From assembly GCF_029961155.1 (NCBI RefSeq), contig NZ_JASBRH010000031.1:1-48370 (forward strand): 48,370 nucleotides of DNA, written 5' to 3'. The notes beneath the pieces are model-generated. The model did not search any database. It was given only the letters and a program-made list of their open reading frames with translations, and had not been told where the DNA came from. Positions 5,776-18,867 of this stretch are shown one piece after another. The stretch's first letter is position 1; each line of letters opens with the position of its first letter. Origin of the DNA: Pontibacterium granulatum. GTDB lineage: Bacteria > Pseudomonadota > Gammaproteobacteria > Pseudomonadales > Balneatricaceae. Position numbers and translations under genes: made by a program.

Positions 5776-6081
5776 ATGAACATGTCTGAATTCATCACCC
5801 TCGCGGAACAACATCGTCTGCGCAATGTTAACTTTATCGAGTCCGGCTGCGGACCGATGGTGATACAGGTCGAGTACGGCAAAGATAAAGATCTGGCCAA
5901 GGATCTGATCAAAGACAATGACGGCGCTGTCATCACCTGTCGCAGCGTGACCGAAGCCTACGATATCTGTCATCGGGCGGGCGTGCATCGGGCTAATCTG
6001 GTGCAGGTTATTCCCCACGATGAAGCCAGTACCAACAGCTTTGCGGATTATCACAGCGAATCGATCCCGTTGAGATTCTGA
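5776..6081 (+). CDS. Small conserved protein, DUF6482-like
   Basis: This 101-residue acidic cytoplasmic protein has no signal or membrane segment. The pattern NVNFIESGCGPMVIQVEYGK near 15-35 and ANLVQVIPHDEAS near 75-88 resembles a small gammaproteobacterial family of unknown function (DUF6482); this assignment is from memory and tentative. GAGAGGAG lies before the ATG at 5776. It has its own transcription space, between the slyD terminator and moxR. Confidence 0.65.
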   Translation: MNMSEFITLAEQHRLRNVNFIESGCGPMVIQVEYGKDKDLAKDLIKDNDGAVITCRSVTEAYDICHRAGVHRANLVQVIPHDEASTNSFADYHSESIPLRF

Positions 6082-6174
6082 TCAGGCTCGGCTGGCGGGT
6101 ATGTTGACCACCTGCGGAACCAGATAGAGGCAATCGGCGTCTGAAGTACTCTTTTTAGGAACCATGGAAGTTGT

Positions 6175-7095
6175 ATGCAAGAGAAGATAGACCACGCCAT
6201 TGAAGTGATCGGAAGTGTCCTTTACGGCAAGGAGCGGCAGATCAGACAGTCTTTAACCTGTCTTTTTGCACATGGGCATCTGTTGATAGAAGACCTGCCG
6301 GGTATGGGCAAGACCACACTGGCTCATGCACTGGCCCAGGTTCTGGGGTTGAATTACCAGCGTGTGCAGTTTACCAGCGATATGCTGCCGGCTGACCTGC
6401 TAGGCGTAACTATATTTGATTCGGCCAGTAACGAATTCCACTTTCATCGCGGACCGGTGTTTACCCAGTTATTGCTGGCGGACGAGATCAACCGGACGAC
6501 TCCTAAAACTCAAAGCGCGCTGTTGGAGGCGATGGAGGAGCGACAGGTCTCCCTTGAGGGGAACACCTATCCCTTGCCTGATCCGTTTTTTGTGATCGCG
6601 ACACAAAACCCACTTAGCCAGTACGGCACCTTTCCGTTGCCCGAGTCCCAACTGGACCGTTTCCTGATGCGAATCGAGCTGGGTTATCCCACCGCAGAAG
6701 CTGAACGCGAGTTGTTGAAAGGCGGTGACGTACGTGATCGCATTGCCGATTTACCTGTGTGTATCGACCAGCAGGCGTTAAGAGAGATCTACTTAGCATG
6801 TGAGCAGGTGCAGGCATCCAACAGTTTGTTGGATTACCTGCAGCGGTTGGTGCGGTACAGCCGTGAAGCCAAGGGCTTTGCCTATGGCATATCCCCCCGC
6901 GGTGCATTGGCGTTGCTGCGCAGTGCCAAAACCTGGGCTTATATGCATGGTCGGCAGTACGTAGTGCCGGAAGACCTGCAGTCGCTTCTTAAACCCGTGT
7001 TTGGACACCGATTGCGCGCCGCCGAGGATTATGCCGAACACGGTGGTTTAGCACTGGTGCAACGTCTGCTCAGTGAAGTGGACGTTGTAGGCTGA
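6175..7095 (+). CDS. MoxR-family AAA+ ATPase
   Basis: This 306-residue ATPase of the MoxR type acts as a chaperone-like motor, usually with a DUF58 protein. Walker A is seen in DLPGMGKTTLAHAL near residues 40-50, Walker B in LLLADEINR near 100, sensor 1 in FVIATQNP near 145, and arginine fingers in PESQLDRFLMR near 160. It is first in a three-gene operon: DUF58 starts 4 bp after its stop, and the transglutaminase gene follows with overlapping codons. This trio is a common gammaproteobacterial set with a probable envelope or protein-maturation role, though the exact substrate is unknown. Confidence 0.93.
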   Translation: MQEKIDHAIEVIGSVLYGKERQIRQSLTCLFAHGHLLIEDLPGMGKTTLAHALAQVLGLNYQRVQFTSDMLPADLLGVTIFDSASNEFHFHRGPVFTQLLLADEINRTTPKTQSALLEAMEERQVSLEGNTYPLPDPFFVIATQNPLSQYGTFPLPESQLDRFLMRIELGYPTAEAERELLKGGDVRDRIADLPVCIDQQALREIYLACEQVQASNSLLDYLQRLVRYSREAKGFAYGISPRGALALLRSAKTWAYMHGRQYVVPEDLQSLLKPVFGHRLRAAEDYAEHGGLALVQRLLSEVDVVG

Positions 7096-11577: not shown

Positions 11578-13347
11578 ATGAGTCTTTACAGCAGTATTGA
11601 AAAGACCTTCTTCAACTCCCTCACGAAAAAAATAGTAGGCAACGTTACGTTTCTATTGGGACCGAACCTGATCATTGCCGCTATCGGTTACTGGGTGTAT
11701 CTGGACCTGAGGTCTGCCCAGACAGCAGATGAGATTGTGCAGAGCGCGTCGACATTGTTTAACGCCAGCTGGGTTTTGTTGTTTTACACCTTGGTTGTGG
11801 GCGTCTTTACTGTGCTCTTCATGCGTCATCTGTTCCTGAGACCGATTGGTGGCATGACGGAGGTCCTCCGGGCAGTGAAAGAGCGTGACGGTGATATCTC
11901 GGCTACGTTGCCGCAGTATACCTACGACGAAATCTCCAGCATGGCCGAAAGCTATAACGATTTCTCGGACAGCCTGAAGAAGATGATTGCTTCAACCCGT
12001 CGACGCAGTGTGCAGGTGGCGCTGAGTGCGACGCAGCTGCAAAAGGTGATCAACGAAGCGCATACCTCTGCGGCACAGCAGGAATCACAAGCGTTGATGG
12101 TATTCCAGGCCAGCCAGGAAGCGACCAGCGCGATTGATGAGATTGCGGCACATACCCTGGAGATCTCCGAGCGTAACGGAAAGAACCTGGAAGAGGTGCG
12201 AAGTTCCAGCAGTGAGATGAACCGTGTGATGCAGCAGGTGCAAGCGGTGGGTCGCCAGATCGGCGAATTCCAGAGTACCGTGCATCAGCTGTCGGCCAAC
12301 TCTGAAAACATCATGCGTGTACTGGGCATGGTGAAAGACTTTTCCGATCAAACCAACCTGTTAGCCCTCAACGCGTCCATTGAGGCTGCACGTGCGGGTG
12401 AAGCGGGACGTGGCTTTTCGGTGGTGGCCGATGAAGTACGCTCCCTGTCACTGAAAGTGAGCAGTGCGACCTCCGAGATCGACAAGAACGTGAGCGAGAT
12501 GACCACGTTGGTGGGCAACACCCGTGAAGGCGCCGATACGATCAAAGAGTACATCACCGATACTGAAACCTTTATCGGCAACACCAATACCCAGTTCTCT
12601 AACATGGTGGTCGACTTCGAAGAGCTGAACGGTCAGCTTAGCAGCATCAGTGCTGCGATCGACGAGCTGGCGTACACCAACCGCAATACCCATGAATATG
12701 TGTCCGATATCACCAAGATCTCTGAGGAGATCAAGGATGAGATGGAAGTCTCCAAGGGCCATTCCGGTGAGTTGGAGAAAGCAACTGAAGAGACACAGGA
12801 GCTGCTGTCCCGCTTTATCATCGGCTACGGCGGTTTTGAGGAGATGATCCAGGCGGGCCGTGGCTGGGCGCAGGAAGCCACGACGATGCTGGAAGAACTG
12901 GAGAAACAGGGAACCAACGTCTTTGATACCCATTACCGCCGTACCAATGAGGGGCAGCTACCGGAGAAGTACGATACCTCGTACGTGGATCTGTACGAGT
13001 CGCGCATGCGGCCGCTGTTTGATCGCTTTATCAGCGAGCGTCCGGAGTTTATTTACGCCATAGCGGTGGATCGCAACGGTTACGCGCCGGCACACCACAC
13101 CAAAGTGTCGGAGCCGTTGACCGGGAACTTTGACGTGGACAACATGAAGAGCCGCAACCGCCGTATATACGCTGGCAGCCGTGCAGAGCAGCGTCGTGCG
13201 AGCCATACCTCACCGTTCCTGTTGCAGACCTTTATCCGGGATACCGGCGAGGTGCTGAACGACCTGTCAATTCCGCTCTATGTGAATGGCAAGCATTGGG
13301 GGGCGTTGATTATGGGCTTTGAACCAAAACACCTGTTGTCCGAATAA
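11578..13347 (+). CDS. Methyl-accepting chemotaxis protein with C-terminal sensor domain (copy 1)
   Basis: This 589-residue chemoreceptor has two membrane helices (about 22-45 and 62-86) joined by only some 20 periplasmic residues, so it cannot sense with a periplasmic domain. A HAMP-like part follows (87-140), then the signalling hairpin with the conserved tip [20 protein letters not shown] near 260-280. Beyond the coiled coil, residues 440-589 form an extra cytoplasmic domain ([44 protein letters not shown]), shared with the receptor at 17071. This C-terminal domain is the likely sensor, and the ligand is unknown. No CheR/CheB-docking pentapeptide is seen. Confidence 0.93.
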
Positions 13348-13870: not shown

Positions 13871-14437
13871 GCTGCTTTTATCCTATAGATCTCTGGCATT
13901 TAATCGGTCGCGGAAAGCAGTGTGCAAGGAATGCTGTGTTAAGACAAGCGCTTGCGGTTGCGACCATGGTCCCGTATCGGGCGTTACGCTTTTGGCCGAT
14001 TTATGCCCTATCGTTAAGCGCTTATGTAATTTGAAATTATAAAAACCCGTCAGGAAGGGGACTATGTTTACCTTTTCTGCTGTGCGTTGTGCTCTCGTAG
14101 CAAGAGATAATGGAAAGAAGAGGGGCCATAATCCTAATCTCTGAAGCAGCTCCGGAAGAGGTCGACAAAAAGGGAGTGGCTGGCCTTGAAAATCTACCTG
14201 CCTGTCAAACGCCTCTCTGCACTCTTTTTGCACCCATTATTATGCAAATTTTATTCATCTGAACCATCCTGAATGTGCTGATTTACGCGAAGTTGCAGTC
14301 ACATGGCGCTTCCCTTAGGAGAATTTCTTTCAGCTTAGTTTCAGGTTTAGCGGCTAATTTGCTTCGTGCACGAACGTGCATTCAATTATTTCGCTCCGAA
14401 AATGAGTACAAAAACTCGATCCCTAGGGAGAAATCAG
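13871..14437. other. Long intergenic region upstream of bufA
   Basis: These 567 bp hold no convincing gene; the reading frames here lack ribosome sites and recognisable motifs. They should contain the promoters of the minus-strand membrane protein and of bufA. A TTCGTGCACGAA palindrome (14363-14374) is the only clear symmetric site. No metal-regulator box could be identified with confidence. Confidence 0.5.
14363..14374. promoter_or_regulatory. 12-bp palindrome upstream of bufA
   Basis: TTCGTGCACGAA is perfectly symmetric and is followed at once by CGTGCA, repeating the half-site. It lies about 63 bp before the bufA start codon, a plausible operator position. No regulator gene is adjacent. 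Confidence 0.35.
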
Positions 14438-14893
14438 ATGAATAAAAATACTAAGAACGTGATGAGCGGGATGGCCGTTGCATTTGCGGCGGCCGCGATT
14501 GCCGGTTGTTCAGCAACAGCCAGTACCAACGAAACTGCAGTTGCGGCTAATACAACCGATCTGGTTCATTGCGCCGGCGTGAACGTGTGCAAGGGCCACA
14601 ACGACTGCGGTGGTGCAAACAACGCATGTGCCGGCCAAGGCTCCTGTAAGGGTTCCGGATTTGTCGTAATGCCGTCCAAAGCCTGTGGCGATGTGGGCGG
14701 TAAAGTCCAGGACGACTGGCGGGGTGAAGTGGCGAAAGCAGATCTGGTGCAGTGTACGGGTGTGAACGTATGTAAAGGCCATAACGACTGTGCTGGTGCC
14801 AAGAACTCTTGTGCAGGCCAGGCATCCTGCAAAGGTACCGGTTTCGTACTGATGAGTGCGAAGGCATGTGGCGATATCGGCGGCAAATCTTAA
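14438..14893 (+). CDS. bufA: Bufferin precursor with tandem six-Cys units, lipoprotein-like
   Basis: This is a 151-residue RiPP precursor of the bufferin type (BufA2-like), a family of periplasmic copper-binding peptides whose cysteines are altered by the MNIO enzyme BufB. The signal segment (1-23) ends in a lipobox, IAGC at 21-24, so the product is probably lipidated. Two copies of the unit follow, residues 41-90 and 102-151. They have Cys at 45, 51, 57, 64, 70, 83 and at 106, 112, 118, 125, 131, 144, exactly 61 residues apart. Each carries CKGHNDC and KACGD(V/I)GGK. Known precursors have one unit and a cleavable signal, so the doubling and the lipobox are unusual. GGAG lies 7 bp before the ATG; bufB starts 198 bp downstream. 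Confidence 0.88.
14558..14890 (+). repeat. Internal duplication of the bufferin unit
   Basis: The two units (14558-14707 and 14741-14890) encode 50 residues each and are separated by a short linker ([11 protein letters not shown]). All six Cys and most Gly, Lys and Asn positions are conserved. The third bases differ often, so the duplication is not recent and has been kept by selection on the protein. Confidence 0.85.
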
Positions 14894-15091
14894 TGATGCG
14901 TTGATGACCTGAACTTTCAGGTTGATGCGAATATCCGATGGATTTACCCCTGTTGGGTATTTGCATCTATCTAAAGCAGTTTACTGTGCCTGCTAAGCAG
15001 GGAACACAATCTTGTAGCGGTGAGGTCTGAATGATCGATGGGGTAGGTTCATTCAGATGGACACCGAGGATGTGAGTAAAAGGTTCTTTTT

Positions 15092-15949
15092 ATGTCGCAA
15101 CATTTTCTTGGCTTCGGATTGGGGCTGCGCACTGATCATCTCCACGATGTGCTGGAACAGAAACCGGACCTTGACTGGTTTGAAGTGATCTCCGAGAACT
15201 TCATGGTTGATGGCGGCAAGCCTAAGTATTACCTACACAGTATTCGTGAGCATTACCCAATGGTGATGCACGGGGTGTCTATGTCACTGGGATCAACCGA
15301 TCCGCTGGACATGGATTACCTGAAACGTCTGAAGCAACTGCACTATGAGCTGCAGCCGGAGTGGTTCTCGGATCACCTGTGCTGGACCGGACTGAACGGT
15401 GTCAACGCCCATGATCTGCTACCGCTGCCGTATACCGAAGAGGCGATCAACCACTGCGTTGAGCGTATCCAGCGGGTTCAGGATTACATGGGGCGCCAGA
15501 TGCTGATCGAAAACGTTTCCAGTTATATCAGCTATGCCGAATCGCAGATCAACGAGTGGGAGTTCCTGCGTGAGGTGAGCGACCGGGCGGACTGCCATAT
15601 CCTGTTTGATGTGAACAACATCTATGTCAGTGCCCGTAACCATGATTTTGATCCGATGGAGTACATCAAGGGCACCAACCCGGATCGCGTGCGCCAGTTC
15701 CATCTGGCCGGTCACACCGACTACGGTGACTATGTGATCGATACCCACGATCACGATGTGCCCGACCCGGTCTGGCAGCTGTATAAACAAGCGTTGCTGC
15801 ACTTCGGTCCAGTGAGCACTATGATCGAGCGTGACGACAACATCCCATCCCTGGCGGATCTGATGGCCGAGCTGGATATCGCACGTCGTATCGCTGCAGA
15901 TACCCTGTCGGCGGAGGCGCTGACGCCACGGTGCAAGGAGGCGGTATGA
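15092..15949 (+). CDS. bufB: MNIO (DUF692) iron oxidase, BufB
   Basis: This 285-residue TIM-barrel enzyme of the multinuclear non-haem iron oxidase family modifies cysteines of the BufA precursor, using oxygen. Family motifs run in order: GLGLRTDH at the start, FEVISENFM near 30, VMHGVSMSLGS near 58, SDHLCW near 94, LIENVSSY near 142, FDVNNIYVSA near 174, FHLAGHTD near 208, DTHDHDVPDPVW near 218 and MIERDDNIPS near 246. These supply the His, Asp, Glu and Asn ligands for the iron cluster. It is the second gene of bufABC and overlaps bufC (ATGA). The leader between bufA and bufB has two hairpins and may tune expression. Confidence 0.93.
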   Translation: MSQHFLGFGLGLRTDHLHDVLEQKPDLDWFEVISENFMVDGGKPKYYLHSIREHYPMVMHGVSMSLGSTDPLDMDYLKRLKQLHYELQPEWFSDHLCWTGLNGVNAHDLLPLPYTEEAINHCVERIQRVQDYMGRQMLIENVSSYISYAESQINEWEFLREVSDRADCHILFDVNNIYVSARNHDFDPMEYIKGTNPDRVRQFHLAGHTDYGDYVIDTHDHDVPDPVWQLYKQALLHFGPVSTMIERDDNIPSLADLMAELDIARRIAADTLSAEALTPRCKEAV

Positions 15950-16734
15950 CCCTGAGAGACCGTCAGCAGCAGTTACTGGCCTACATGATGGGGCAGGAGT
16001 CCGGGATTGCAGAGCATATCTGCGATCATGGCAAGATCTCGGTGGAGCATCGCCTGCACATCTACCGCAATGCCTATCAGGTACGTTTCTGGGAAGTGAT
16101 CGATACGGACCATCCGGTGCTGGGTACTTACCTGGGGGATGAGCTTTTCAACAACATGGTACGTGACTATATCCACGCCTACCCATCCCACTTTCGCTCT
16201 TTGCGTCAGTTTGCCGATCAGTTGCCCAGGTTCCTGACTGAAGATGAAACCCTCAGCGCGTACCCCCATATCGCTGAGCTGGCACGGTTTGAACGCGAAC
16301 TGCTGAATGCCTTTGATGCGGCCGATACGGAACGGGTAGAAAGGCAGGATCTGGTCGACCTGCTACCGGAAAAATGGCCAGGGCTCAAGCTGGTGTTCCA
16401 TCCCAGTCTGATTGTGTTTACTACCACCTACAATGTGGTCGACATCTGGCAGCATATTAAAGCCGAGCGCGCACCGCCTGAGCCACTGCAGCAGGACGAG
16501 ACCTGGCTCATCTGGCGCAACCGTGAGCGGCTGACCGAGTTCTCCAGCATGGATAACTTCGAGTTCACCATGTTTATGGCATTTCGCGACGGTAGCACGC
16601 TTGAGCAGGTGGCGGAGTTACTGTTGGAGATCAGTCACAGTGATCCATCCCAGCATATGGTCGAGACGCTATTCGCTTGGTTGGACAGGGGCTGGATCAC
16701 CCAGTTGGATATCGGTCTGCACGCGATCAAATAA
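15946..16734 (+). CDS. bufC: BufC, DUF2063 partner of the MNIO enzyme
   Basis: This 262-residue protein has an N-terminal DUF2063 (putative DNA-binding) domain: LRDRQQQLLAYMMG, then HRLHIYRNAYQVRFWEVIDTD near 45, and YIHAYPSHFRSLRQFAD near 80. In characterised bufferin systems the BufC-type partner binds the precursor and presents it to the MNIO enzyme; it is not thought to act on DNA. The ATG at 15946 overlaps the bufB stop (ATGA) and follows AAGGAGG, so the pair is translationally coupled and probably forms a complex. Confidence 0.9.
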   Translation: MTLRDRQQQLLAYMMGQESGIAEHICDHGKISVEHRLHIYRNAYQVRFWEVIDTDHPVLGTYLGDELFNNMVRDYIHAYPSHFRSLRQFADQLPRFLTEDETLSAYPHIAELARFERELLNAFDAADTERVERQDLVDLLPEKWPGLKLVFHPSLIVFTTTYNVVDIWQHIKAERAPPEPLQQDETWLIWRNRERLTEFSSMDNFEFTMFMAFRDGSTLEQVAELLLEISHSDPSQHMVETLFAWLDRGWITQLDIGLHAIK

Positions 16735-17070
16735 CGCCTTAATCACGCAGGTGATCTCCTGATGCCTGCGGTTCCCGCCTTTCCTGTATCCGCCTGAAAA
16801 CCTGGCTTCTACGACCTTTGGCCAGTGATTTACTTATTCCTGTAAAGAACTTCTGTTTTTCCAAATCGGCATTGATTAATTGGTCTCCATGGACTTATTT
16901 GGCTTTGCGCCGAAGTGCCTATTTTGTGTGGGATTGTAACGGTTTGTGCAGGGCTGAAATGAGTTGTAAGGAGTTGTCTTGTTGGTTGAATGTTCAATTT
17001 AATTTTGCGATGTTCTTTGGCCACGAAAAAGGCTTGTAAGACCAAAGCATAATAAGAAACGGGACCTGGA
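16735..17070. other. Intergenic region between bufC and the second chemoreceptor
   Basis: These 336 bp hold no supported gene. A short mirrored ORF pair (about 70 codons) has no ribosome site or motif. The region should contain the bufC terminator and the promoter of the chemoreceptor; no strong terminator hairpin is evident. Confidence 0.45.
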
Positions 17071-18867
17071 ATGAGTCTTTACAGAGCGATCGAGCGCACT
17101 TTTTTTAACACCCTTACAAAAAAAATTATCGGTAACGTCGCCTTTTTGCTGACCCCCAACTTGGTGGTGATCGGCATCGGTTACTGGCTGTATAACAACC
17201 TGCTCTCCCTGCGTGATGCGCTAGGCAGCGAACACGCTCTCAGCGGTCAGATTATGGCAACCGCGGATAGCCTGTTTCAGGCCTCCGGCTGGATTCTGGC
17301 GTTCTCCGTCGTGGCCGCAGGTTTCACCATCGTCTTCATGCGCCACTTGTTCCTCACTCCGATCCGTAACATGACCGACGTTCTGCGGGCGGTGAAGGAC
17401 AAAGATGGCGATATCTCCGCCACACTGCCGGATGAGACTTTTGACGAGATCTCGGCAATGGCGGAGAGCTATAACGGTTTCTCGACCAGTCTGAAACAGA
17501 TGATCGCCGACACCCGCCAGCGCAGTGTGCGTGTCTCACTCAGTGCCAACCAGTTGCAGAAGGTCGTGCAGGCCTCGACCCAAGATGCCACGGCGCAGGA
17601 GTCCACCGCGCAGATGGTGTTCCAGGCCAGCCACGAAGCGACCCAGGCGATCGATGAGATCGCGGAAACCACCCAGACCATCTCCGCCAGCAATAACAGC
17701 AACCTGGAGGAGATCCGTAGTTCCAGTGAAGAGCTGACTCTGGTGCAAGAGAAAGTGCGTGCCATTGACGCCCAGGTTCACGACTTCCAGGCGGTGGTGC
17801 AGCAGCTCTCCAGCAACTCCGAAAACATTATCAAAGTCCTGTCGCTGGTACAGGACTTTTCCGACCAGACCAACCTGCTAGCGCTGAACGCCTCCATCGA
17901 AGCTGCGCGGGCCGGGGAAGCGGGGCGGGGCTTTGCTGTCGTGGCTGACGAGGTGCGTTCCCTGTCGCAGAAGGTCAACGGCGCCACCCAGGAGATTGAT
18001 GCCAACGTGCATGAGATGGTCTCGCTGGTGGATACCACCCGTAAAGGGGCAGCGAGTATTCTGGATTATGTATCGGATACCGATCAGTTTATCCGCCAGA
18101 CCAACGACAAGTTCACCGGCATGGTGGGCGACTTTGAAAGCCTGAACGGTCAGCTCACCGACATCAGCGCGGCGATCGAAGAGCTGTCCAGCACCAACAA
18201 GAACACCCACTCCCACGTGTCTGAAATTGCCGACCTCTCCGACAAGATCAAGTCGGAGATGGAGCAGTCCACAGAGTATGCCATGGAGCTGGAGGCGGCC
18301 ACCGAAGAGATGCAGGAGCTGCTGTCGCGCTTCACCATCGGTTACGGTGGCTTTGAAGGCATTATCCGCACGGCACAGGGGTGGGCGAAAGAGGTGGAGG
18401 CAGAAATACAGCGTCTGCATGACCAGGGGATGAACCTGTTTGATCAGAACTACGTGCGCACCAACGACGGTCAGTTGCCGGAGAAGTTTGATACTAGCTA
18501 CACCGATGCCTACGACAGCCGTATCCGCCCGCTGTATGATCGTTTTATCGAAGAGAAACCGGACTTCCTGATCGCGTCAGCGTTCGATGTGAATGGCTAT
18601 TGCCCGGCGCATAACACCAAGGTGTCGCATCCGATGACCGGTGATTTTGCCGTGGACAACGTACGCAGCCGTAACCGCCGGATCTACAACGCCAATCGGG
18701 CAGAGATGCGCCGTGCGGCTCAGACCTCACCGTTCCTCCTACAGACCTTTATCCGCGATACCGGCGAGATCCTTAACTCAGTATCGGTGCCGATGTATGT
18801 GGGCGGTCGTCACTGGGGCAACTTCTGTGTCGCCTTCCAGCCAGACCATCTGATGAGTGTGAGCTAA
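17071..18867 (+). CDS. Methyl-accepting chemotaxis protein with C-terminal sensor domain (copy 2)
   Basis: This 598-residue paralogue of the receptor at 11578 has the same start ([13 protein letters not shown]) and the same order of parts: helices near 22-45 and 70-93, HAMP-like region, signalling tip [20 protein letters not shown] near 270, and a C-terminal cytoplasmic domain (about 450-598) with [19 protein letters not shown] and [17 protein letters not shown]. The periplasmic loop is only slightly longer (about 30 residues). The pair encloses bufABC. Either one duplicated around the locus, or both sense something linked to bufferin action (metal or redox state); that link is inference. Confidence 0.93.

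What the first reader, a model, noticed from the sequence alone, without database searches (positions are those of the whole stretch)
14438..16734. Tandem-duplicated, apparently lipidated bufferin with its MNIO enzyme
The precursor carries two six-Cys units whose cysteines are all exactly 61 residues apart, behind an IAGC lipobox instead of a plain signal peptide. BufB and BufC follow, overlapping each other. Known bufferins are single-unit and exported as soluble periplasmic peptides. A two-domain, membrane-tethered form with up to twelve modifiable cysteines would be a new variant, perhaps a higher-capacity or surface-fixed copper trap.
Basis: partly seen in the sequence, partly recalled or inferred. 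Interest (0 to 1): 0.8.

Follow-up and report, generated by a model that had tools for sequence, protein, structure and literature searches.

The report
Two-unit, probably lipid-anchored copper-binding bufferin
A marine bacterium carries a gene set for a probable copper-binding peptide with two repeated cysteine units and a likely lipid anchor; both features were already reported for this peptide family, so it is a good example of a known kind rather than a new system.

Summary
BufA (14438-14893) has an IAGC lipobox (C24) and two six-Cys units, C45-C83 and C106-C144, each Cys pair 61 residues apart; an MNIO maturase (BufB) and a DUF2063 partner (BufC) follow, overlapping by ATGA. NCBIfam names BufA and BufB as the BufA2 bufferin and its maturase. 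The novelty claim fails: a 2025 survey reports 12-Cys, duplicated-domain Buf2 precursors (about 10%) and lipoprotein signals (about 16%), and two related MNIO peptides were shown to be lipidated. Here I found 95 distinct two-unit precursors, 70 with a lipobox. On a BufB tree the two-unit form changes once, the lipobox about 11 times: one lineage with an optional anchor. 'Twelve modifiable cysteines' is probably an overcount. New leads: a response-regulator-type box 110 nt upstream of bufA recurs before a second MNIO metallophore cluster, msrPQ and a two-component operon, a set resembling Caulobacter's copper-induced SigF regulon (buf1, buf2, msrPQ) with another kind of control element; and a hairpin after bufA is common in the family. 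Most likely function: a periplasmic copper buffer on the inner face of the outer membrane. Copper binding, lipidation and regulation are inferred, not shown.

The parts
14328..14344 (+). 11-bp direct repeat TTTCAG-N5-TTTCAG, probable response-regulator box
   Evidence: Present in the 4 aligned same-genus upstream regions (the fifth genus member, G001, has no exact copy before bufA); 6 exact copies in the genome, reversed-pattern control 0
14355..14360 (+). TAATTT, -10-like hexamer exactly 10 nt after the box
   Evidence: TAnnnT at this spacing in 6 of 6 copies in the genome; not found by the sigma-70 scan; inferred promoter
14438..14893 (+). bufA: two-unit BufA2 precursor, 151 aa
   Evidence: NF050166, 125.3 bits, two stretches
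14438..14506 (+). signal peptide of BufA, ending in lipobox IAG|C24
   Evidence: Sequence; lipobox at this place in 5 of 5 genus members; lipidation inferred
14507..14509 (+). Cys24, predicted lipid attachment; Ser25 at +2
   Evidence: Sequence; sorting by the +2 rule is recalled knowledge
14570..14686 (+). unit 1, C45-C83
14687..14752 (+). linker between units with conserved DxW
   Evidence: DxW in 94 of 95 distinct two-unit proteins
14753..14869 (+). unit 2, C106-C144
14894..15091 (+). bufA-bufB intergenic region with an 18-bp stem hairpin (about 14924-14967)
   Evidence: MFE -69.6 kcal/mol, z -3.89; stem sequence changes between the window, L035 and L037 and still folds in their counterparts L016 and L017
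15092..15949 (+). bufB: MNIO bufferin maturase
   Evidence: NF050167 385 bits; PF05114 376.9 bits
15946..16734 (+). bufC: DUF2063 partner protein (PME1 type)
   Evidence: PF09836 65.1 bits

Best explanation
bufABC makes a BufA2-type copper metallophore. BufC presents the precursor to BufB in the cytoplasm, and BufB oxidises inner cysteines of each unit, most likely to thiooxazoles; the Cys-Lys sites C51, C70, C112 and C131 are the best candidates and the outer pairs C45/C83 and C106/C144 are likely disulphides. The precursor then leaves by Sec, Lgt lipidates C24, signal peptidase II cleaves before it, and the two-unit domain hangs on a 20-residue tether, probably from the inner face of the outer membrane, where it buffers excess copper near periplasmic proteins. 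The hairpin after bufA lets more precursor than enzyme be made, and an OmpR-type response regulator switches the operon on together with a second metallophore cluster and msrPQ. Shown here by sequence: gene identities, duplication, lipobox, hairpin, shared box. Inferred: chemistry, sites, lipidation, location, copper binding, role of the hairpin, regulator and signal.
For: BufA2, BufB and DUF2063 matches. In the two-unit scan a BufB match lies 68-271 nt after BufA in 78 of 80 loci, and a BufC match is present in 75 of 80; some loci are cut short. BufB has ERDD at the active-site motif; Gadgil et al. (PMC13097082 section 14) tie Asp at the residue after the catalytic base to Cys-Lys substrates, and the same genome's EGKCG maturase has ERDF, Phe being what they describe for Lys-Cys enzymes. 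Lipobox in 5 of 5 genus members and 70 of 95 distinct two-unit proteins; no Asp at +2 in any of 98 lipobox rows (41 family-sample, 57 scan, some shared). Hairpin z below -2 after bufA in 49 of 70 two-unit lipobox, 18 of 25 two-unit without, 14 of 18 single lipobox and 64 of 110 single without, against 27 of 234 control stretches. Box: 6 copies in the genome, control 0; copies precede bufA, the EGKCG cluster, msrP and a two-component operon. In Caulobacter buf1, a buf2-type cluster and msrPQ belong to the copper-induced SigF regulon (PMC8224329 passages); E. coli MsrPQ is copper-induced through CusSR (PMC9302797 abstract).
Against: No metal, lipid or transcription data exist here for this protein. 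Eight of the 12 unit cysteines are not followed by Lys, and Asp at the BufB position is Ala or Gly in many two-unit rows (13 of 70 lipobox rows, 21 of 26 without, rows not deduplicated), so that specificity rule is loose. The lipobox comes and goes on the BufB tree, so tethering cannot be essential in the lineage. The exact box is absent before bufA in Marinobacterium jannaschii (G001) and was found in only 9 of 83 two-unit lipobox rows (these 9 are four genomes, some counted more than once), with one mismatch in 6 more, and in 0 of 26 two-unit rows without lipobox and 0 of 126 single-unit rows. The box before the EGKCG cluster is about 450 nt upstream inside a SLAC1-family gene. The regulator is under all 25 curated models shown, copper ones included. 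No DoxX gene lies next to this operon.
Confidence: 0.75

Rival explanations
1. Same peptide, but it is cleaved by ordinary signal peptidase I and released as a soluble periplasmic bufferin; C24 is incidental.
For: 25 of 95 distinct two-unit relatives have no lipobox by my rule, and those look like ordinary signal peptides by eye; the lipobox changes about 11 times on the BufB tree.
Against: A lipobox (IAGC in four, LAAC in one) sits at the end of the hydrophobic segment in 5 of 5 genus members, followed by a Ser/Thr/Ala-rich tether; two MNIO peptides with such signals were shown to be lipidated (PMC12636315).
Confidence: 0.12
2. The main target is not copper: the peptide protects against an oxidant such as hypochlorite, or another metal, the box regulon being an oxidative envelope-stress response.
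For: The box precedes msrP, a periplasmic methionine-sulfoxide reductase, whose E. coli homologue is triggered by reactive chlorine as well as copper (abstract); small secreted proteins of unknown role share the box; the two-component pair is under every curated cut-off shown, copper ones included.
Against: The Buf1 bufferin of Caulobacter chelates copper and its Buf2 is reported to behave alike; buf1, a buf2-type cluster and msrPQ are jointly copper-induced there.
Confidence: 0.15
3. The two units differ in role, one being modified and the other a structural or docking domain.
For: The linker is conserved (DxW in 94 of 95), and the units are 77% identical in the window, so they have had room to diverge.
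Against: Both units keep all six Cys and the same Cys-Lys pattern in the window.
Confidence: 0.1

Closest known systems
Buf2 / BufA2 bufferins, 12-Cys subgroup (Antoine et al. 2025; NF050166)
   Same: BufA2 profile, two six-Cys domains, Sec signal, bufABC gene order, BufB and DUF2063 partner; lipoprotein signals reported in part of Buf2
   Different: Nothing outside the published range; the sections read (4, 13, 14, 21) do not describe the two traits together, nor the linker, hairpin or box
DAG-RiPPs: lipidated DybA and NedA (Chen et al. 2025)
   Same: MNIO-modified precursor with a lipobox
   Different: Those are chryseobasin-like and EGKCG precursors; lipidation shown for them, only predicted here
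Captophorins: fontiphorin, oxazolin, bulbicupramide
   Same: MNIO plus DUF2063 partner, copper-related
   Different: EGKCG repeat (Lys-Cys) substrates; the same genome has one of these too (L262)
Caulobacter SigF regulon
   Same: Gene set: two MNIO metallophore clusters plus msrPQ
   Different: Controlled by an ECF sigma factor; here a direct-repeat box of response-regulator type, and further small genes

Membership tests
BufA2 bufferin (Buf2) | Match to the curated BufA2 profile over its cut-off | tested here: met
   125.3 bits vs 60
BufA2 bufferin (Buf2) | Six conserved Cys per unit | tested here: met
   Two full units
BufA2 bufferin (Buf2) | Sec-type N-terminal signal | tested here: met
   By inspection and my script's hydrophobicity rule; SignalP not available
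BufA2 bufferin (Buf2) | bufABC order with MNIO maturase and DUF2063 partner | tested here: met
BufA2 bufferin (Buf2) | Cys-derived thiooxazoles / 4-Da loss per Cys | not testable with these tools
   Needs mass spectrometry
BufA2 bufferin (Buf2) | Copper binding and copper protection | not testable with these tools
   Needs bench work
Bacterial lipoprotein (DAG-RiPP) | Lipobox at the end of the signal hydrophobic segment | tested here: met
   IAGC, C24
Bacterial lipoprotein (DAG-RiPP) | Diacylglycerol on the Cys | not testable with these tools
   Needs labelling or mass spectrometry
HvfC family (EGKCG partner) | BufC over the HvfC cut-off | tested here: not met
   59.2 vs 142 bits
PME1 (DUF2063) partner | DUF2063 domain | tested here: met
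   65.1 vs 27.2 bits
Copper-type response regulator (CusR/CopR) | Candidate regulator (L261:12496-13161) over the cztR_silR_copR or copper/silver regulator cut-off | tested here: not met
   163.2 vs 279.2 and 143.7 vs 420 bits

The most novel reading that the evidence does not exclude
Two MNIO metallophore systems, periplasmic methionine repair (msrPQ) and a two-component system form one envelope copper-stress regulon in this marine lineage under a response-regulator box, the counterpart of Caulobacter's SigF regulon with an unrelated switch. Within it, a once-evolved duplicated BufA with an optional lipid anchor acts as a membrane-fixed copper buffer.
Probability: 0.45. Interest if true: 0.55.

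Novelty: new member of a known kind. Interest (0 to 1): 0.35.

Why it matters
It puts numbers on a form that the survey read here mentions only briefly: by the BufB tree the duplicated BufA has one origin, with a nearly fixed 61-residue spacing, while the lipid anchor is gained or lost repeatedly. That makes paired tests possible: lipidated and soluble natural versions of the same two-unit peptide. The shared box gives a testable prediction that copper capture and methionine repair are switched on together, as in Caulobacter, by a different regulator.

Tried and rejected
Chance or artefact: rejected. 'Two-unit and lipobox are functionally linked': looks strong in raw counts (23 of 26 two-unit vs 17 of 122 single-unit, Fisher p 2.9e-13, after leaving out 6 long-leader single-unit proteins), but on the BufB tree the two-unit trait changes once, leaving one independent pair and no test. 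Local re-duplication in this genus: unit 2 of the window's lineage groups near unit 1 in a 71-row tree (28 two-unit proteins that I picked, 15 single units drawn at random), but with only 48 columns and weak support; undecided. Against a single origin: in that same weak tree two single units (L153, L220) fall among the two-unit ones. Intrinsic terminator after bufA: no T run after the stem in the window, and the scan of 13900-17100 found 2 terminator-like sites against 2.8 expected, neither of them there. Sigma-70 promoter for the operon: one site in that stretch, on the other strand, against 2.9 expected. The box as a general BufA feature: no excess over shuffles in single-unit or non-lipobox rows. 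Copper genes behind one-mismatch boxes: the two extra sites showed none, by reading the ORFs only. Solved relatives of BufA: none at E up to 1; of BufC: none at E up to 0.1. AlphaFold2 of BufA: mean pLDDT 67.4, pTM 0.59, residues 1-35 under 50; two similar strand-helix patterns, too weak to place disulphides, so no fold search was made. Rows dropped: matches under the family cut-off were not classified, and the match list was cut short among weak ones; fetched loci L219, L232 and L241 gave no protein passing my spacing pattern; one spurious frame in L036 (still among the 110 single-unit rows) and identical proteins were removed. For the BufB tree, loci with mixed BufA classes, with too little BufB or with membrane-leader fusions were left out; 157 usable rows were thinned to 123 (55 single without, 52 two-unit with, 15 two-unit without, 1 single with lipobox). 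The hairpin controls are not deduplicated and used 10 shuffles each against 20. The lipobox rule is my own script rule; it flags 18 of 128 single-unit proteins (14%) and 41 of 154 in all (27%, in a sample rich in the window's relatives), against a published 16% for Buf2 as a whole.

Full report
What is there. The window lies in a 4.66-Mb genome (75 contigs; window is contig C24). BufA is 151 residues: signal peptide, lipobox IAGC (C24), a 20-residue tether rich in Ser, Thr, Ala and Asn, unit 1 (C45, 51, 57, 64, 70, 83), a linker with DDW, and unit 2 (C106, 112, 118, 125, 131, 144). The NCBIfam BufA2 model matches with 125.3 bits in two stretches. BufB matches the bufferin-maturase model with 385 bits, and BufC carries DUF2063. 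BufC starts inside the BufB stop codon (ATGA). No DoxX gene is adjacent; two chemoreceptor genes lie on either side.

How common it is. I searched four overlapping genome samples with the BufA2 family (77, 390, 369 and 398 genomes; matches in 32, 57, 97 and 62, over the cut-off in 16, 29, 67 and 26), fetched the matches over the cut-off that had no locus, and classified 154 distinct proteins: single-unit 128 (18 with lipobox), two-unit 26 (23 with lipobox). A scan of the genome collection (84,980 species by the tool's description) with the two-unit alignment gave 281 relatives, best 80 kept; these 80 were two-unit, 57 with lipobox. That scan favours two-unit forms by design. Together there are 95 distinct two-unit proteins, 70 with lipobox; the spacing is 61 in 93 and 62 in 2, and the linker DxW is in 94. 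Named carriers include Pontibacterium, Marinobacterium, Amphritea, Neptuniibacter, Shewanella, Pseudoalteromonas, Microbulbifer, Endozoicomonas and Marinicella; one MAG labelled Verrucomicrobia (L088) may be contamination.

One origin, optional anchor. On a tree of 123 BufB sequences (quick method) the two-unit label needs one change and the lipobox label eleven; well-supported branches alone force at least four changes of the two-unit-with-lipobox label. So the duplicated precursor and its maturase look like one lineage, with the lipid anchor gained or lost repeatedly inside it; many Shewanella and Motilimonas members lack it. A much weaker tree of the units themselves places two single units among the two-unit ones. 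The raw association of the two traits is not independent evidence that they work together.

How many cysteines are modified. Published Buf1 data put the modification on the central Cys and a disulphide between first and last (figure legend). [quoted passage not shown] Gadgil et al. describe a Cys-Lys substrate group with BufA2 as its example. In single-unit proteins Lys follows the second to fifth Cys in 122, 79, 104 and 117 of 128. In two-unit proteins the figures are 56, 69, 18 and 88 of 95 for unit 1 and 70, 77, 13 and 90 of 95 for unit 2, so Lys after the fourth Cys is mostly lost. In the window only the second and fifth Cys of each unit are followed by Lys. I therefore expect four to eight modified cysteines, not twelve. 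The BufB residue after the presumed catalytic base is Asp in the window (ERDD) and in 55 of 59 single-unit rows, as described for Cys-Lys enzymes, but Ala or Gly in 13 of 70 two-unit lipobox rows and 21 of 26 two-unit rows without lipobox, so the rule is not strict. Equating this motif with the published FonB positions is my inference.

Where it sits. None of 98 lipobox rows has Asp after the lipid Cys. By the +2 rule, which I recall and did not test, that favours the outer membrane, facing the periplasm by default. I saw nothing that points to the cell surface, and made no dedicated search for it.

Expression. The bufA-bufB gap folds into an 18-bp stem (z -3.89). The stem sequence differs in L035 and L037, and the same regions, read as L016 and L017, still fold into it, in L017 with two mismatched positions. 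Across the family the 85 nt after bufA fold with z below -2 in 145 of 223 cases (49 of 70, 18 of 25, 14 of 18, 64 of 110 by class) against 27 of 234 control stretches taken 400 nt further on. I read this as a processing, stabilising or leaky-termination element that favours the precursor; such arrangements are familiar in RiPP operons (recalled).

Shared control box. Four of the five genus genomes keep TTTCAG-N5-TTTCAG about 110 nt before bufA; M. jannaschii has no exact copy there. The genome has six exact copies, the reversed control none, and all six have TAnnnT exactly 10 nt on. The five genus genomes have 6, 10, 9, 6 and 6 such sites (G000 to G004), control 0; in the family 42 of 116 genomes have sites, while one has a control match. 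What lies downstream in the other genera was not examined. In the window's genome the boxes precede bufA; an EGKCG precursor with its own MNIO, DUF2063 and DoxX genes (box about 450 nt away, inside a SLAC1-family gene, but the same or one base different in G002, G003 and G004, which the coding sequence alone might explain); msrP (also in G003 and G004); small secreted proteins followed by an OmpR-type regulator and a sensor kinase (the small proteins also in G003 and G004); another pair of small secreted proteins; and a hypothetical protein. Two sites with one mismatch added no recognisable copper gene. The regulator resembles RppA, PmrA, QseB and PhoP and is under all 25 curated cut-offs shown of 90 matching models, copper regulators included; that it binds the box is inferred from the box lying before its own operon. 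In Caulobacter, buf1, the cluster CCNA_02999-03001 and msrPQ belong to the SigF regulon and are induced by copper in all four conditions, and a sigF mutant grows poorly with copper (PMC8224329, passages and Table 2; that CCNA_02999-03001 is buf2 is my reading). E. coli MsrPQ is copper-induced by CusSR (PMC9302797, abstract). The same functional set under a different kind of switch is the most interesting lead here, and it is untested.

What is known and what is not. Seen: PMC12452194 abstract and sections 4, 13, 14, 21; PMC13097082 abstract, sections 7, 13, 14 and passages; PMC12636315 section 12 and passages; PMC12538549 abstract and section 9 part 1; PMC8224329 passages; PMC9302797 abstract and outline; PMC12509749 one passage. 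The original bufferin paper (PNAS 2024) is not held and was not read. Five library searches listed no paper whose title, abstract start or passages seen describe two-unit and lipidated bufferins together or this box; that is no proof of absence from print.

Verdict. A real and well-conserved gene set, correctly described, but a member of a published subgroup. Interest is modest for the peptide itself, higher for the regulon lead.

Noticed in passing
L262 (G000:C11:50000-60500), precursor 5994-6422 (-): Second MNIO cluster in the same genome: EGKCG precursor with ten EGKCG motifs, HvfB-type maturase (442.2 bits, cut-off 360), DUF2063 partner and DoxX; its MNIO has ERDF where BufB has ERDD.
   Followed up: partly
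window 14328-14360; G000:C3, C11, C55, C74: Direct-repeat box plus TAnnnT at six places including before bufA, msrP and a two-component operon; exact sites in 42 of 116 genomes of the family.
   Followed up: partly
window 11578-13347 and 17071-18867: Two chemoreceptor genes, 62.5% identical, flank bufABC; relatives flank it on both sides in L037, upstream in L034 and downstream in L035 (both short loci), and not in L036 or L038.
   Followed up: partly
L265 (G001:C3), L288 (G002:C5), L259/L284 (G000:C74): Secreted proteins of about 75-80 residues ending in YDPxLY-like motifs, several in tandem and behind their own copies of the box; the two from G000 that I tested had no Pfam or NCBIfam match over a cut-off.
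   Followed up: no
L054, L056, L057, L085, L090, L096 (Shewanella) and others: Two-unit BufA without lipobox whose BufB has Ala instead of Asp after the presumed catalytic base.
   Followed up: partly
L227, L228, L230, L233, L237: Single-unit BufA2 domains behind a long leader with a probable membrane segment, perhaps the published MerC-Buf2 fusions; not checked against a MerC model.
   Followed up: no
85 nt after bufA in 223 cases: A strong hairpin after the precursor gene is common across BufA2 clusters, single- and two-unit alike.
   Followed up: partly
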